Made by a program: the position numbers and the translations under genes. The notes beneath the pieces were generated by a model, which was not told the DNA's origin, searched no databases, and saw only the letters and a program-made list of their open reading frames with translations. Below are positions 18,335-27,944 of a DNA stretch of 27,944 nucleotides, piece after piece. The stretch comes from a virus: the IMG/VR virus record IMGVR_UViG_3300025770_000076, positions 1 through 27,944 of that record. One strand, given 5' to 3'. How positions within the stretch are numbered: position 1 is the stretch's first letter; every line of letters begins with the position of its first letter.

Positions 18335-18361
18335 GCGTAGAGATTATTAGTGGAGGAAGCG

Positions 18362-20764
18362 ATGATTGAAGTAATCACAGGCGATACAGTTTTACTGGAG
18401 CTTGTTTTGGCAGATGGGGACACCACAAGGTTTCCGCAGGCTGAAATATACGATAGTGCTGGTGTTGCCATCGTTGCAAGCCCGGTGAACCTTTCCCATG
18501 TTGCAGATGGCCTTTATCAAGGTACGTTTACTGCTCCTGCCATCGGCGGATATTCGATTATCTACATTACATATAGCGACGCGCTGCATACGACGCTGGT
18601 CGGAAACATCGAGCGTGTCTCTGAACATATGCGGGTAACGAACGCCGTGCAGGACGATGTTTGGGCAGAAGCCCTTCCTGGCGCTTTTGGTGCTGGCTCG
18701 GCAGGCAGCATTGTTGGCACCAACCTAGACGCCACCATCAGCAGCAGGTCTACTCTTACGCAGGCGGACATCCTAAGCGATGCCACTCCGTTCGCGGGAG
18801 CATTGATACCCAATCTTGATGCAACTGTTAGCTCTCGCTCAACATTGACTCAGGCTGACATTTTAAGTGATGCTACTCCATTCGCTGGAGCAAGCATAGA
18901 CGCGACTATTTCAAGTCGAGGCACTGCCAATCCCGGTGACGCAATGACACTGACCGCAGGCGAGAGAACAGCTATTGATGCCCAACTCAGTGGAACTCAC
19001 GGCGCTGGAAACTGGGAGTCTGCAAGCGCAACAGACTGGACTGGCGCAGAGAAGCAACAGATTCGTCAAGCGCTAGGTGTTACGGGTCTCACGGCTGCGA
19101 CTGCTGCGGGCGAACTTCAGGATGTCCTTGCGGATACTGCGGCGATGGAGCCGCTGGTGTCCACGAACCTGAACGCCACCGTAAGCTCCAGGTCTACGCT
19201 GGTCCAAGCAGATATTTTATCTGATGCAACACCATTCCCCGGAGCGGATATCGACGCAACGATCTCCAGCCGGTCAAGCCATACAGCCGCAGACGTTGAT
19301 GCCCTCGTGACAGCCAGTCATGGCGCGGGCTCGTACATCACGGCAACTGGATTCGCAGTGGCTGGAGACAACATGGGTCTCACCGCTGCGGGTGTTGATG
19401 CCGTATGGGATGAGCCTATTGCAGGTCACCTTGGCGTTGGCAGTGTTGGCGAGGCCCTGAATGACGCATCCAGTGGAGCAGGCGTTGACTGGACAGTCTC
19501 GGAGCGAAGCCAAATGAGGCAGGCGTTGGGCATCACGGGTGCCACCTTGGCCACCGCAGCCGGTGAACTTCAAGATGTCTTGGCTGATACGGCAGCCATC
19601 GAGCCGCTTGTCACAGCTAATGTCGATGCGACCATTAGTTCTCGGTCTACTTTGACCCAGGCAGATATCCTTTCTGATGCAACACCGTTTGCTGGTGCAA
19701 GCATCTCAAACCTTGACGCAACTGTTAGTTCCCGATCCACATTGGCCCAGGCAGATATTTTGTCTGATGCCACACCTTTTCCAGGTGCGGACATCGATGC
19801 AGCAATATCTACGCGGAGCAGTCACACTGCCGCAGATGTGGATGCTTTGGTCACGGCGAGTCATGGGGCAGGGTCTTATCAGACGGCCACTGGATTTGCA
19901 GTCGCCGGGGACAACATGGGGCTTACGCCAGCAGCAACCGCAGCGGTCGATGTAGAGCTTACCGCGACACACGGCGCAGGCGCATGGACTGGCGGCGGAG
20001 CTGGTCTAACTCAGCAACAAGTGCGTGACGCGATGAAGCTTTCGCCAACGGCAGGTGCTCCGGCAGCAGGGTCTGTGGATACGCATCTCGATGACATCGA
20101 GGCAGATACGAGTGCAATGCAGCCGGTGGTCGCCACAAACTTGGACGCTACTGTTTCCAGTCGTGGAACAGCAGACCCAGGTGATGCGATGACGCTTACA
20201 GCCGGAGAACGCACAGCCATCGACACTGAGCTTTCTGGCACCCACGGCGCTGGTCTTTGGGAGTCAGATTCAGATACGGATTGGACCGCAGGAGAAAAAG
20301 AACAGATTCGCCAAGCACTCGGCGTTACTGGGGCAACCGCGGCAACTGCCGCTGGTGAACTGCAAGATGTTCTTGCGGATACCGCAGCTATCGAGCCAGT
20401 CGTTACGGCCAACCTCGATGTGGCTGTATCAACCAGGGCGACACCTGGGGATGCAATGAGCCTGGATCCTGCTGGTGTCGATGCCATTTTCGACGAGTCT
20501 CTTGCTGGTCATCTCGCGACAGGAACAGCGGGTCAAGCACTTGCTGCCGCATTTGGTAACGCAGGTGGTAATGTCAGGGACGATGCCTTGACATACGACG
20601 CAAACGATAGACCATTGACTTTGCGTAGACGCATCTTCCCAGATGCTGCCACCGCCAACGCTTCCACGCCGGGAGGAGTTGGAGAGGGCGAACTCATAAC
20701 CGTTACCATGTCGGCTGTCCAGATAGACGCGGCCAAATGGGAAACACTGCTGAGGACGATATGA
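18362..20764 (+). CDS. BppU-like baseplate/fibre adaptor with degenerate-codon tandem repeats
   Basis: The ATG at 18362 follows GGAGG by six bases and is preferred over an in-frame GTG at 18350 that overlaps this site. The product is 800 residues. The N-terminal ~90 residues (MIEVITGDTVLLELVLADGD) have the short beta-domain pattern of phage baseplate upper proteins. Residues about 120-690 are built from repeats: a 30-residue unit (SSRSTLTQADILSDATPF), an 87-residue unit present twice (GDAMTLTAGERTAID ... AAGELQDVLADTAA) and a unit beginning SSHTAADVDALVTASHGAG present twice. VWDEPIAGHLGVGSVGEAL also resembles repeats in phage tail fibre linkers. The C-terminus (YDANDRPLTLRRRIF) matches a common end module. 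The repeats probably form a long helical or coiled spacer. Repeat DNA is highly diverged although the protein is not. Confidence 0.62.
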   Translation: MIEVITGDTVLLELVLADGDTTRFPQAEIYDSAGVAIVASPVNLSHVADGLYQGTFTAPAIGGYSIIYITYSDALHTTLVGNIERVSEHMRVTNAVQDDVWAEALPGAFGAGSAGSIVGTNLDATISSRSTLTQADILSDATPFAGALIPNLDATVSSRSTLTQADILSDATPFAGASIDATISSRGTANPGDAMTLTAGERTAIDAQLSGTHGAGNWESASATDWTGAEKQQIRQALGVTGLTAATAAGELQDVLADTAAMEPLVSTNLNATVSSRSTLVQADILSDATPFPGADIDATISSRSSHTAADVDALVTASHGAGSYITATGFAVAGDNMGLTAAGVDAVWDEPIAGHLGVGSVGEALNDASSGAGVDWTVSERSQMRQALGITGATLATAAGELQDVLADTAAIEPLVTANVDATISSRSTLTQADILSDATPFAGASISNLDATVSSRSTLAQADILSDATPFPGADIDAAISTRSSHTAADVDALVTASHGAGSYQTATGFAVAGDNMGLTPAATAAVDVELTATHGAGAWTGGGAGLTQQQVRDAMKLSPTAGAPAAGSVDTHLDDIEADTSAMQPVVATNLDATVSSRGTADPGDAMTLTAGERTAIDTELSGTHGAGLWESDSDTDWTAGEKEQIRQALGVTGATAATAAGELQDVLADTAAIEPVVTANLDVAVSTRATPGDAMSLDPAGVDAIFDESLAGHLATGTAGQALAAAFGNAGGNVRDDALTYDANDRPLTLRRRIFPDAATANASTPGGVGEGELITVTMSAVQIDAAKWETLLRTI
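18722..20404 (+). repeat. protein-level repeats with near-saturated synonymous divergence
   Basis: ADILSDATPF(A/P)GA is encoded at 18764-18802, 18854-18892, 19208-19246, 19661-19699 and 19751-19789. An 87-residue unit lies at 18899-19159 and again at 20144-20404, with 74 of 87 residues identical by my count. A third unit starts at 19247 and 19790. The 30-residue unit occurs twice as a direct pair (spacing 90 bases). Every SSR tripeptide in the array (eight copies) uses a different nine-base spelling. The repeats are therefore invisible or weak at DNA level. Confidence 0.85.
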
Positions 20765-24100: not shown

Positions 24101-24322
24101 ATGGACTTGATTAGCTGGGGAAGTGGACGTGTTGGCGATGCAGATCGAGACGGAAACCTTGAACTTGAAATCAAGGGTGTAAAGGTCTTGGGCGCATTCA
24201 GTGTACCCGATGTCAAAGTGGAGCTACCCACATCCGTGATAGCTGCCGGACTCATCACTTTGGGACAGACAGCAGCGGCAAAAATGCCATGGGCTGCGGC
24301 ACTCGGAAGGCTGATGAAATGA
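24101..24322 (+). CDS. small protein in the lysis cassette, unknown
   Basis: GAGGGAGAG precedes this ATG. The 73-residue product has a beta-like first half (LELEIKGVKVLGAF) and a weakly hydrophobic C-terminal half (SVIAAGLITLGQTAAAKMPWAAAL) that might lie on or in the membrane. Its stop TGA overlaps the amidase ATG (ATGA), so it is translationally coupled to the endolysin. Position between the holin candidate and the amidase suggests a lysis accessory or antiholin, but this is inference from context alone. Confidence 0.55.
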   Translation: MDLISWGSGRVGDADRDGNLELEIKGVKVLGAFSVPDVKVELPTSVIAAGLITLGQTAAAKMPWAAALGRLMK

Positions 24323-24906
24323 AAGTGGTCGAGCGGATACCCGAAGATATTCCTCGTCCAATAAGAAAAATAACCTCAAGCATTGTTGTCCACCGGATCA
24401 AAATTGGATACACGGTGGATTCTGTGCATGAGTTTTTCACGGAAGACCCAGAGGGCGTTGCCACGGTGACCATTGGGAGCCTTGAGGCCCGCTTGGATGC
24501 GATTCGGGACTGGAGGAAGTATGGTGTGCCGGAAAACTATAAAAGCCGAGCATACGTCCCGTACCACTATATCGTGGACAGGAAGGGGAAGGTTTACCAG
24601 TTCCTTGACGCAGCGTGTAAAGGTGCCCACTGTGCAGGAGTTAATTCTACTTCCATTGGGGTTGGTAACTTTGGGGATTTTCGTCGTTCGAGTCCAACGG
24701 CTAGTCAAATCTTAAGCACGAAGCATCTCTGCCGAGACCTGTGGTTAGACTTTCCTGACATCCGTGGGGTCTACGGTCATGACGAGATCTTAGCTATGCG
24801 AAACCGAAAACCAAAACAATGCCCAGGGCCAAACTATCCGATTTCGGAAGTCCGATCCTGGGCATCCACTGCCGTACAGAACGTGAATAGTGACGACAGA
24901 TTTTAG
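24319..24906 (+). CDS. endolysin, N-acetylmuramoyl-L-alanine amidase (Amidase_2/PGRP type)
   Basis: The 195-residue protein carries the zinc amidase fold of T7 lysozyme and related enzymes, which cut the bond between N-acetylmuramic acid and L-alanine in peptidoglycan. Zinc ligands are likely H25 (SIVVHRI), H154 (GVYGHDEI) and C168 (KQCPGP). The catalytic pair corresponds to Y82 (PYHYIVDRKGKVY) and K166, keeping the K-x-C spacing of T7 lysozyme. The segment GAHCAGVNSTSIGVGN matches the conserved substrate-side loop. No signal peptide is seen, so release should need a holin such as the gene at 23794. There is no added cell-wall-binding domain. The start overlaps the previous stop. An in-frame ATG at 24289 lies within the previous gene and is less likely. 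Confidence 0.9.
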   Translation: MKVVERIPEDIPRPIRKITSSIVVHRIKIGYTVDSVHEFFTEDPEGVATVTIGSLEARLDAIRDWRKYGVPENYKSRAYVPYHYIVDRKGKVYQFLDAACKGAHCAGVNSTSIGVGNFGDFRRSSPTASQILSTKHLCRDLWLDFPDIRGVYGHDEILAMRNRKPKQCPGPNYPISEVRSWASTAVQNVNSDDRF

Positions 24907-24918
24907 CACGTATGTGGT

Positions 24919-25371
24919 TCAGTTGGGTTTTTGCTCCGTAGTTTCACCTCCCTTCTTTAAAAAGGAAGCCTCATCCTCCATCGTGTGGGCATCTCCCAAT
25001 CTCATAGGGCTTACGATGTAGGCATCATCGGAATCGGAAGGGTTTTGCGGCGTCGGGGGGACGGACTTTACCTTAAACCCGACAATGTAATAATTTTCTG
25101 GCGGGAAACCGTCATCCAGGTTAGGAAGTACGGATACGAACGGACCCTCCGTAAACTCCAGTGATTCAAATTCCCACTTTGGATGCGCGTTGCTTATTCC
25201 TTCTGTCGCTGCTTCGATAGCACGATCAACAGATCCTGACACGTTGCTCATTGTGTCCAGGGCAACCTCGCTGTTGTGCCTGTTTAGGCATAACTGCATC
25301 ACCTCATCTGGATTCATCCAAGATGCGAACTTAAACAAACCATCTATTTCATCCACTTCGTACACGTGCAT
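24919..25371 (-). CDS. hypothetical accessory protein
   Basis: I place the start at 25371 because AGGAGG lies five bases upstream; a longer in-frame start at 25461 would overlap the upstream gene by 74 bases. The product has 150 residues. It is acidic in its N-terminal part (MHVYEVDEIDGLFKFASW) and has a beta-rich central segment (NYYIVGFKVKSV) after a Pro/Gly-rich loop. No known motif is recognised. It is the last gene of the opposite-strand block and stops 12 bases from the amidase stop, so the two transcription units converge here. Confidence 0.6.
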   Translation of the reverse strand: MHVYEVDEIDGLFKFASWMNPDEVMQLCLNRHNSEVALDTMSNVSGSVDRAIEAATEGISNAHPKWEFESLEFTEGPFVSVLPNLDDGFPPENYYIVGFKVKSVPPTPQNPSDSDDAYIVSPMRLGDAHTMEDEASFLKKGGETTEQKPN

Positions 25372-25387
25372 TCCATCCTCCTTCTTG

Positions 25388-25687
25388 TTAGAATTCATCA
25401 AGGTGGTCGATGTCGATCCCTTCCTTTTCGGCATAGTCTCGAATCCGCCCCATGAGTTCACGCGCCCCTATGCCCAGGCAGACACGTAGTATATGCGCCC
25501 TTTCAACCTTGGACATGCTCGTGAGAGCGTAAAACTCTTTTTGCTCGCAAACCCAGTCAGTATTTTCCCGGCAGAAGACCTTCATGTCACCCACCTTCCT
25601 GTCTAGGTGGCCCGCAATGGAGACCGTTATCTTCACCGGCTTCCTATGGCCTTCGTCGGCCTTGTCTTTAGGTGTTTTTTCTGGCAT
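25388..25687 (-). CDS. small hypothetical protein, possible ribbon-helix-helix-like
   Basis: This 99-residue protein starts four bases after the upstream gene's stop, preceded by AAGGATGATGGA, a modest ribosome binding site. A Lys-rich N-terminus is followed by a strand (KPVKITVSI) and helices, with MSKVERAHILRVCLGIGARELM (written here in parts: MSKVERAHILRV, CLGIGARELM) resembling the helical half of ribbon-helix-helix DNA-binding proteins. The resemblance is weak and the internal insertion is long. Regulatory function is therefore speculative. It lies directly downstream of the HTH-HNH gene and upstream of another unknown, presumably co-transcribed. Confidence 0.55.
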   Translation of the reverse strand: MPEKTPKDKADEGHRKPVKITVSIAGHLDRKVGDMKVFCRENTDWVCEQKEFYALTSMSKVERAHILRVCLGIGARELMGRIRDYAEKEGIDIDHLDEF

Positions 25688-25691
25688 TCCA

Positions 25692-26957
25692 TCATCCTTT
25701 TTCGCTGAGATTGTAGATTTTTTTTACCACCAGAGACTTCAACGTCTCACGAATGCCCATTGTCTTTACTTTGTTAATCTCCATCTGCATTTTTTCCATG
25801 TTTTTTTTGAGTTCTATGTTTTTCTCTTCTTCTTGACTTAGCCTCTCTGTGAGAGTTTTTATTTTTATGTTTTTTTCTATCAGCTTTTCATGGTGTGCTG
25901 CGGTGCCGCTTTTTTGTTGGACATTGAAATCCTGTCTCGCTGCTGGATTACTTTCGGATTTAATTCTTTTTAATACGTCCCCTGAAAAGTCGCTTCCGTA
26001 TATGCTCTTAAACTCATTAGCGTACATCTTATAAAAGCTTCCTTCTTTTCTTTGTTTCGCTAGCTCAAAAAAGTGTTCAGCCTTATTTTTGCCGACGGCT
26101 TGATGAAACCTGCGAATCAATATGGAAAGAACGCTCCATATCATATTTGAATATGAGTTTGATGTATGCTTTGCTGCTGAGTTATGCCTTACTTTCATCC
26201 CTATCAGGTCTTCCATTTTTTGGGTCATGCTTCGAAACATTTCGTCTGCTTGACTCTTTGATATCCCTCCGCTTTCCTCTGTGGCAATAGCAACGGCGTC
26301 ATACCAAAAAACTGCCTCACCAAGAAAGAAAAGCTGCTTTATTGGTTGCCTTACTGCGCAGTGGTGCTTTGTCCTCAGCCACTCTGCCTGAACATCCAGT
26401 GGCTCACAGTCTGGCTGCTCTCTGTGGCACAAATCGCACAGAAGAAGATAATTTCCTGGTTCATTAACTATTGTGTCCAGGTTTTTATCTTTTGCATATT
26501 CCTGGGGAATTATGTGGCACCTTGTTAACTTCTGCACTGGAGCAAGACACGCCCAACATGTATCCCTAGCTGTTTCCAAAACAAGTTCTTCTCCGTTGTC
26601 TCTGAATTTATTATGAATAACAGCGTGAATATCGGGTGACTCTAAGTCGAAAAGAGCCTCCGCAATTCGGCTTTGTGAAGGCATATTCTTTCTAAGGTCT
26701 TTCTTTTTTGCTTTTAAACGCGCACCTTCACGTCTTAAGTTTGATTCTTTTCTTTCTTTTGCCTCCATCGCTCGCAAAACCTCCGCCCTGCTAAGGAGAA
26801 GGGGAGAAGTTGACGAAGAATATGGCCCCCTTTGATCGCTAATAAACCCCTCTCTCTTCCATCTTCTTATTGTGTGGGCAGCTTTTCCGGTTATCTCACA
26901 GGCTTTTCTAAGCGTGATAATTTCATCGCCTTCTAGGTGCTCTTTTAAGGTTTCCAT
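25692..26957 (-). CDS. HTH + HNH nuclease + coiled-coil protein
   Basis: The start at 26957 is supported by GGAGG nine bases upstream; a longer in-frame start at 27005 lacks that. The 421-residue protein has three parts. Residues about 13-65 form a helix-turn-helix of MerR/excisionase type (LRKACEITGKAAHTIRRWKREG). Residues about 134-180 form an HNH nuclease core: C134-x2-C137, H148 in RCHIIP, N169 in GNYLLL, and C174-x2-C177-H178, with the four Cys forming the structural zinc site. Residues about 355-400 form a charged coiled coil (KLIEKNIKIKTLTERLSQ; EEEKNIELKKNMEKMQ). HNH proteins cut DNA as homing, packaging or defence nucleases; the HTH suggests site-directed binding and the coiled coil dimerisation. 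The gene appears more AT-rich than the tail genes. Which role applies is not visible. Confidence 0.72.
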   Translation of the reverse strand: METLKEHLEGDEIITLRKACEITGKAAHTIRRWKREGFISDQRGPYSSSTSPLLLSRAEVLRAMEAKERKESNLRREGARLKAKKKDLRKNMPSQSRIAEALFDLESPDIHAVIHNKFRDNGEELVLETARDTCWACLAPVQKLTRCHIIPQEYAKDKNLDTIVNEPGNYLLLCDLCHREQPDCEPLDVQAEWLRTKHHCAVRQPIKQLFFLGEAVFWYDAVAIATEESGGISKSQADEMFRSMTQKMEDLIGMKVRHNSAAKHTSNSYSNMIWSVLSILIRRFHQAVGKNKAEHFFELAKQRKEGSFYKMYANEFKSIYGSDFSGDVLKRIKSESNPAARQDFNVQQKSGTAAHHEKLIEKNIKIKTLTERLSQEEEKNIELKKNMEKMQMEINKVKTMGIRETLKSLVVKKIYNLSEKG

Positions 26958-27442
26958 ACCCTTTGTCCTCCCTTTAGTGTGACGTAGTAGCAGGCATGTG
27001 AACAAAACTTGCGGTCCTGTCCCCGTTGCCCTGTGAATCTCTTACCGCACGTCTTGCAGGTCAGTGTTTTTGCACCACCGTGCTCGTTTAGGTGGCACGT
27101 CCGGCAAATCCACTCGACGTCAAGTGGCTTGTCGTAATCATGGTGATGACCATGGATCTCTCGTGATACGTGTTTCTTGTTACACTTCTCACACTTTTCT
27201 GGCTTGTCTATTTCCCCACGCTTAACCGCTCTGTCGAGCTTCCCGTGGGCTCTCTTCTTCTTGTTGTGAAGGTCTCTTTCTTCGTCGGTCATTCTTGCCG
27301 CACGTTCTCTTCTCCTCGCGGTATCCATCTCGTACTTACACGGCTTGCACCACGAACTCAGACCGTCCGTCGATGCCTTCTTTTTGTGGAAGTCAGCATG
27401 TGGCTTGGCCGATTTGCACTTTGAGCATTCCTTTGTTTTCAT
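26945..27442 (-). CDS. HNH endonuclease with three zinc modules
   Basis: This 165-residue protein begins with a zinc ribbon (C6-x2-C9 ... C32-x2-C35; ECSKCKSAKPHADFHKKK) of the type common at the start of phage HNH proteins. Then comes the HNH core: C84-x2-C87, IHGHHHDYDKPLDVEW (residues 96-111), and C113-x2-C116-H117. A third Cys4 motif (C129-x2-C132 ... C147-x3-C151) ends the protein. The invariant HH.DY.KPL pattern is typical of HNH endonucleases found in phages. AAGGGG precedes the ATG. The 3' end overlaps the next gene's start by 13 bases and contains that gene's GGAGG, so expression is probably coupled. The role may be homing or packaging-related cleavage; context does not decide. Confidence 0.85.
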   Translation of the reverse strand: MKTKECSKCKSAKPHADFHKKKASTDGLSSWCKPCKYEMDTARRRERAARMTDEERDLHNKKKRAHGKLDRAVKRGEIDKPEKCEKCNKKHVSREIHGHHHDYDKPLDVEWICRTCHLNEHGGAKTLTCKTCGKRFTGQRGQDRKFCSHACYYVTLKGGQRVWKP

Positions 27443-27514
27443 ATGTACCCCTTACTTCCACCACTGGTCATGCTTTTTTCTTTTTATCATTGCCGTTCCC
27501 TTTTATTTTTATGC

Positions 27515-27944
27515 TTACAATGACCCCACCTTCAGGGGTGCCTTAAAGATATCGTTCACAGTGCTAAAGGAGGCCCCGTCAAGGGAGCGGCCCTCGCCAC
27601 ACGATGCCCAGACCTGGCCAGAGAAAGAAATTTTCCACCCGTCTGTGACCGGCACGTAGCCCGGTATGATCAACTCGCCCACCATCGAATACCTTAACGA
27701 GCACATCATTGCCTTGTAGGCCGGTTTAAGTTCGCCGTTACAGTCAAACGCAAATCTTCTTTCGCGGATAAACGATAAGTTTGAGAAAACTAATGTAAAC
27801 GCGGTAGAAAATTTTCTTCCAGACCTGGAGTATATAGATTCTTGATATGTTTGAGACTGCCTCAATGTCTTTCTTATTTTCTTTACCTGCCCTCTGGTGT
27901 TCATAAGGTCAAAGTGTTTCACTTCGACGCCAAAAGGCTTCTCT
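27515..27944 (-). CDS. unrecognised protein, N-terminus cut by window edge
   Basis: The frame is open from the right edge of the window down to a TAA at 27515-27517. A GTG at 27920-27922 could be read as a start, but the frame stays open upstream of it (EKPFGVE precedes), and no ribosome binding site is visible, so a truncated gene is more likely. The visible ~143 residues contain no known motif; the C-terminus (WKISFSGQVWAS, then SLDGASFSTVNDIF) looks beta-rich. The 72 bases between this stop and the HNH gene are A-rich and hold the HNH ribosome binding site and nothing else convincing. Confidence 0.55.
   Translation of the reverse strand, partial: EKPFGVEVKHFDLMNTRGQVKKIRKTLRQSQTYQESIYSRSGRKFSTAFTLVFSNLSFIRERRFAFDCNGELKPAYKAMMCSLRYSMVGELIIPGYVPVTDGWKISFSGQVWASCGEGRSLDGASFSTVNDIFKAPLKVGSL

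What the first reader, a model, noticed from the sequence alone, without database searches (positions are those of the whole stretch)
25692..26957. HTH-HNH-coiled-coil protein of unclear role
The combination of a MerR/excisionase-like HTH, a zinc-stabilised HNH core with intact H148, N169 and H178, and a C-terminal coiled coil is not one I recognise as a standard homing or packaging nuclease. The gene stands in an opposite-strand block beside a second HNH gene and two unknown small genes, and is visibly AT-rich. It might be a mobile endonuclease, a regulator with nuclease activity, or part of an anti-competitor system.
Basis: partly seen in the sequence, partly recalled or inferred. Interest (0 to 1): 0.6.

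Follow-up and report, generated by a model that had tools for sequence, protein, structure and literature searches.

The report
Accessory HTH–HNH nuclease gene in phage
A tailed-phage genome carries a recently acquired gene for a probable DNA-cutting enzyme that joins a MerR/excisionase-like DNA-binding domain to an HNH nuclease; it sits in a genome slot that related phages leave empty or fill with other genes, so it is most likely an unusually built member of the common group of mobile phage nucleases.

Summary
The gene is real: an intact 421-codon ORF (25692-26957, minus strand) with a good ribosome site, overlapping the end of a second HNH gene by 13 bp. Its three parts check out to different degrees. 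The N-terminus is a MerR/Xis-type winged HTH (weak profile hits, fitting predicted topology). The core is an HNH nuclease with all family-invariant residues, including H148, N169 and H178 (52.8 bits against 9.0 for the best of 2,000 shuffles; profile of 23 independent viral proteins). The C-terminus is a long helix; a coiled coil is likely but not proven. No relative covering all three parts was found in the phage, plasmid, IMG/VR or GTDB collections, within the limits of those searches. Three related phage contigs lack the gene: one has an empty slot, one holds other small genes, one has a helicase. It is the lowest-GC gene of the window. Best reading: a recently acquired, DNA-targeted, free-standing HNH endonuclease, homing-like or competitor-excluding, in a cassette slot at the end of the early operon. 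A nuclease fold is well supported; cleavage and homing are inferred. New variant of a known kind, modest interest.

The parts
25692..26957 (-). P0001: 421-aa HTH-HNH-long-helix protein, intact ORF, ATG start, SD GGGAGG
26760..26930 (-). MerR/Xis-type winged helix-turn-helix, residues ~10-66, followed by a basic helical linker (67-92, net charge +8)
   Evidence: PHROG 66 E 9e-4, Pfam MerR_1 E 7e-4, AF2 secondary structure H16-23, H27-35, E54-56, H57-91, Foldseek GlnR prob 0.99 / CadR / Pukovnik Xis, charge
26358..26576 (-). Zn-type HNH nuclease core, residues ~128-200: CWxC...RCHIIP...N..LLC..CH...P...W
   Evidence: hhalign against 23 viral proteins without P0001, prob 98.3, E 2.6e-14; 52.8 bits vs shuffles 9.0; AF2 pLDDT 84-89
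25902..26357 (-). helical middle region, residues ~201-352; no detectable family
   Evidence: no Pfam hit; low to moderate pLDDT
25698..25901 (-). C-terminal single long helix, residues 353-420, probable oligomerising coiled coil
   Evidence: H353-420, pLDDT mostly 71-92; heptad test not significant
26945..27442 (-). P0002: second HNH / endonuclease-VII-like zinc-finger nuclease, 165 aa; its last 13 bp overlap the start of P0001
   Evidence: phrog_2340 endonuclease E 2e-26, endonuclease VII phrog_1035 E 3e-8; ~91% DNA identity in contigs G003 and G004
25388..25687 (-). 99-aa unknown protein in the same slot; 68% identical homologue in G003
24919..25398 (-). 159-aa unknown protein, last gene of the slot; its final ~11 codons are slot-border sequence shared with G003 and G004
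24958..26974 (.). variable slot: absent from G004 (12 bp instead), other genes in G003, helicase plus 115-aa gene in G001
24319..24906 (+). amidase (endolysin), conserved border of the slot
   Evidence: Pfam Amidase_2 E 2e-16; 99% identical to G001

Best explanation
P0001 is a free-standing DNA endonuclease that the phage lineage picked up recently. The MerR/Xis-type winged HTH, probably dimerised through the long C-terminal helix, docks the protein on a specific DNA site. The zinc-stabilised HNH core then nicks or cuts DNA nearby. Its benefit is most likely selfish or competitive: cutting co-infecting relatives that lack it, so that repair or recombination copies the gene and its flanks (homing, marker exclusion). 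Shown here: intact gene, HNH active-site residues, HTH-like fold, foreign base composition, presence/absence in one slot at the end of the leftward early operon beside a second HNH gene. Inferred: catalysis, site specificity, dimerisation, and that cutting drives the gene's spread.
For: HNH core with all invariant residues. MerR/Xis HTH by profile and predicted fold. No match to P0001 in G001, G003 or G004 by protein or HNH-profile search, with the same HNH profile ringing in the window as positive control. G004 has P0002 followed 12 bp later by the amidase border, i.e. an empty slot; G003 has other genes in the slot. GC3 outlier, z -5.9. Overlap with another nuclease gene of a kind known from phages. 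Literature: phage homing genes share a plan of DNA-binding domain at one end and nuclease at the other, and sit at borders of genetic exchange (PMC10448857); HNH genes vary in number and place among lactococcal Skunavirus phages, and some show marker exclusion (PMC12724721).
Against: No relative with the same architecture was found, so spread of this particular gene is not shown. The slot is a mosaic with several gene contents, not a clean insertion into one conserved recognition site; joints fall at Shine-Dalgarno-like AAGGAGG sequences, which ordinary phage mosaicism also produces. The usual GG loop after the first histidine is replaced by a longer loop, so activity cannot be assumed. The window is a fragment and no second contig confirms its junctions.
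Confidence: 0.55

Rival explanations
1. An accessory ('moron'-type) nuclease kept for conflict: it degrades host, satellite or competing-phage DNA during infection, with the HTH recognising target or own DNA, but the gene itself does not home.
For: Position at the end of the early operon in a variable slot next to other unknown small genes. The HNH core is distantly like modification-dependent McrA (6ghc, E 2e-7), and weakly like CBASS SAVED-HNH (E 9e-5) and retron PtuB (Foldseek E 3.9, not significant).
Against: No defence-system partner genes recognised nearby; no PADLOC hit for the two small neighbours; no sensor domain detected.
Confidence: 0.25
2. A DNA-binding regulator of the early operon that has acquired an HNH domain, now used for binding or no longer catalytic.
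For: The MerR/Xis HTH with a long dimerisation-like helix is a classic regulator layout; altered loop between H148 and N169.
Against: All nuclease and zinc residues are kept; the gene is absent from relatives with the same early operon, so it is not a core regulator.
Confidence: 0.12
3. A terminase-associated HNH that helps genome packaging, like HK97 gp74.
For: The two HNH relatives that share most with P0001, L026 and L027, lie beside terminase genes.
Against: In the three related contigs the terminase is about 32 kb from this slot, and those phages lack P0001 altogether.
Confidence: 0.04

Closest known systems
Short viral CWxC-type HNH proteins (L025-L052, mostly 164-256 aa; Pfam PF01844 HNH / PF14279 HNH_5 / PF13391 HNH_2)
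   Same: Same HNH core with 11 invariant residues including C134, W135, C137, H148, N169, C174, C177, H178, P182; L026/L027 also share CHxxQPDxxPxxxQxEWL
   Different: No HTH family is found in the 24 scanned members and none has the long C-terminal helix; P0001 has a longer loop and lacks the GG turn
Free-standing phage HNH homing endonucleases (I-HmuI-like, T4 Mob, IPA-HNH with AP2 domain)
   Same: Nuclease domain fused to a DNA-binding module; variable presence at a locus among related phages
   Different: DNA-binding module is MerR/Xis-type instead of AP2, NUMOD or zinc finger; no intron or interrupted gene seen; homing not shown
EcoKMcrA (6ghc)
   Same: Best solved-structure match of the HNH profile (E 2e-7); N-terminal DNA recognition plus HNH
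   Different: Sequence match limited to the HNH core; no significant whole-model structural match (E 0.58)
MerR / excisionase winged-HTH proteins (GlnR, CadR, Pukovnik Xis)
   Same: N-terminal ~66 residues share the winged-HTH topology
   Different: No nuclease in those proteins; here the HTH is followed by an HNH core

Membership tests
HNH nuclease superfamily | H-N-H catalytic residues and paired CxxC zinc ligands in a beta-beta-alpha-metal core | tested here: met
HNH nuclease superfamily | metal-dependent DNA cleavage | not testable with these tools
   needs biochemistry
Pfam HNH_2 (PF13391) | score above curated cut-off (21 bits) | tested here: not met
   18.8-20.2 bits
MerR_1 / excisionase HTH | winged HTH of MerR/Xis topology, profile score | tested here: inconclusive
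   predicted topology fits; MerR_1 20.0 bits on the segment vs cut-off 21.6
Free-standing phage homing endonuclease | gene present in some and absent from other close relatives at one locus | tested here: met
   absent from G001, G003, G004; empty slot in G004
Free-standing phage homing endonuclease | inserted at or next to a conserved cleavage site present in the empty allele | tested here: inconclusive
   P0002-side breakpoint similar in G003 and G004 (26978 / 26975), other side mosaic
Free-standing phage homing endonuclease | biased inheritance in mixed infection | not testable with these tools
   needs phage crosses
Terminase-associated HNH (HK97 gp74 type) | adjacent to terminase genes | tested here: not met
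   terminase ~32 kb from the slot in G001, G003, G004; the window itself is a fragment
IscB / Cas9-type HNH | NCBIfam IscB/Cas9d match | tested here: not met
   no such NCBIfam hit for P0001 or its HNH segment, although several short viral relatives do match the IscB HNH part weakly

The most novel reading that the evidence does not exclude
A new class of phage competition nuclease: a MerR/Xis winged HTH gives site-specific targeting to an HNH cutter that excludes co-infecting relatives, working in tandem with the adjoining endonuclease-VII-like HNH as a two-nuclease cassette that drives exchange of the early-operon end.
Probability: 0.1. Interest if true: 0.55.

Novelty: new variant of a known kind. 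Interest (0 to 1): 0.32.

Why it matters
It adds a MerR/Xis-type targeting domain to the DNA-binding modules found fused to phage HNH nucleases, and shows four alleles of one cassette slot (empty, two small-gene contents, helicase). If it homes or excludes rivals, it would be a compact natural example of an HNH cutter targeted by a regulator-type HTH.

Tried and rejected
Full-length relatives: none by viral contigs, phage tblastn or genome contigs; the collection scans depend on short peptide patterns, so distant full-length relatives may be missed. The one plasmid hit (E 0.09) was a frame-shifted HNH gene of Enterococcus hirae, used only as a bridge to the viral family. Alignment A4 found nothing further in genome contigs. 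Whole-model fold searches gave no confident match. RNA-guided (IscB) reading rejected: no NCBIfam hit for P0001 and no room for a split RuvC in the recognised parts. Terminase-associated reading rejected on distance. Apparent homology beyond residue ~200 seen when P0001 was in the profile vanished when it was left out. The 'coiled coil' label was tested and is not significant by heptads. The AAGGAGGATGGAATGC sequence shared by slot joints occurs only twice in the window: a shared ribosome-site module, not a repeat family. A search for other carriers of the 99-aa gene gave only G003 again.

Full report
Observation. The ORF at 25692-26957 on the minus strand is intact, 421 aa, and overlaps the 3' end of the second HNH gene, P0002 (26945-27442), by 13 bp, with GGGAGG upstream. 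The residues C134, W135, C137, H148, N169, C174, C177, H178 and P182 are all present.

Domains. HTH: PHROG 66 'excisionase and transcriptional regulator' E 9e-4, Pfam MerR_1 E 7e-4 on the isolated segment, just below cut-off. A single-sequence AlphaFold2 model of residues 1-111 (mean pLDDT 68) shows two short helices, strands and a long third helix, and Foldseek returns CadR, GlnR, TnrA, BldC and phage Pukovnik Xis, with high probability for several but E-values no better than 0.036. HNH: direct Pfam scores are just below cut-off. An alignment bridging through an Enterococcus pseudogene found 28 viral loci, from which 23 proteins were aligned. That profile, built without P0001, matches residues 128-199 with hhalign probability 98.3, E 2.6e-14 and 52.8 bits by hmmsearch, while 2,000 shuffles of P0001 reach 9.0 at most. 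The family was collected with a P0001-containing alignment, so the shuffle control, the independent Pfam HNH matches of the members and the invariant residues carry the argument. The best solved structure for the family profile is the HNH of EcoKMcrA (that profile included the P0001 core). C-terminus: residues 353-420 form one helix with good pLDDT; hydrophobic heptads are not better than shuffles (176 of 2,000). Nothing is known about residues 201-352.

Relatives and the locus. No full-length relative was found in viral contigs, phages or GTDB genomes, within the limits of the pattern-based scans. Three related phage contigs were found. G001 (57 kb; amidase 99% aa identical) has a UvrD-like helicase and a 115-aa gene between the 272-aa gene and the amidase. 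G003 (38.8 kb) has P0002 at 91% DNA identity, then a 208/232-aa ORF, a 92-aa homologue of the window's 99-aa gene and a 142-aa protein. G004 (56.9 kb) has P0002 at 91% DNA identity followed 12 bp later by the amidase border. None of the three gives a match to P0001 or to the HNH profile, while the profile rings in the window. The joints lie at Shine-Dalgarno-like AAGGAGG motifs. The window keeps the first nine codons of the G001-type helicase (MIKRKKHDQ) between the 272-aa gene and P0002, so the block replaced that helicase or an allele of it; whether the helicase lies elsewhere in this phage is unknown because the window ends there. Order and flanks agree with G003 on both sides, so a chimeric assembly is unlikely, but no second contig covers the window's junctions.

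Origin. P0001 has GC 41.5%, the lowest of the genes listed, and GC3 40.8%; its neighbours P0002 and the 99-aa gene have GC3 57.8% and 62.0%. Resampling synonymous codons from the rest of the window gives GC3 0.547, sd 0.024, z = -5.9, and none of 72 (overlapping) blocks of equal length elsewhere is as low. This points to recent acquisition from another source.

Function. The conserved nuclease residues plus a DNA-binding domain argue for a targeted endonuclease. Phage homing endonucleases generally pair a DNA-binding module at one end with a nuclease at the other and occupy borders of genetic exchange (PMC10448857), and HNH genes of lactococcal phages vary in number and location, some showing marker exclusion (PMC12724721). 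P0001 fits that pattern, but homing itself is not shown: the slot is a mosaic, no recognition site was identified, and ordinary recombination at gene borders would look similar. A packaging role is unlikely, because in the three related contigs the terminase lies about 32 kb away; among the wider HNH family two members are terminase neighbours and others are not. A defence-type role cannot be excluded; a PADLOC match to SAVED-HNH (E 9e-5) covers the general HNH region and beyond, and no partner genes were recognised.

Verdict. A real, recently acquired accessory gene encoding a probable DNA endonuclease with a MerR/Xis-type HTH not seen in its 28 nearest HNH relatives. New variant of a known kind.

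Noticed in passing
L049:1606-3021: A 471-aa protein with the same HNH core at the N-terminus followed by a serine-recombinase 'Recombinase' domain and zinc ribbon, with no resolvase catalytic domain detected.
   Followed up: partly
27430-27515: Nine-codon remnant of a helicase start (MIKRKKHDQ) left between the 272-aa gene and P0002; the full helicase is present at this place in G001.
   Followed up: partly
18600-20400: The 804-aa ORF 18350-20764, GC up to 58%, shows many off-diagonal DNA matches to related contigs, suggesting internal repeats, perhaps in a tail-fibre-like gene.
   Followed up: no
25368-25383 and 25684-25699; L013:8013-8028: A 16-base ribosome-site module AAGGA(G/T)GATGGAATGC stands in front of three different slot genes and may serve as a short joint for cassette exchange.
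   Followed up: partly
L016:2144-2914: A frame-shifted, unannotated HNH gene on an Enterococcus hirae plasmid between a SEC-C protein and an AbiH family gene.
   Followed up: no
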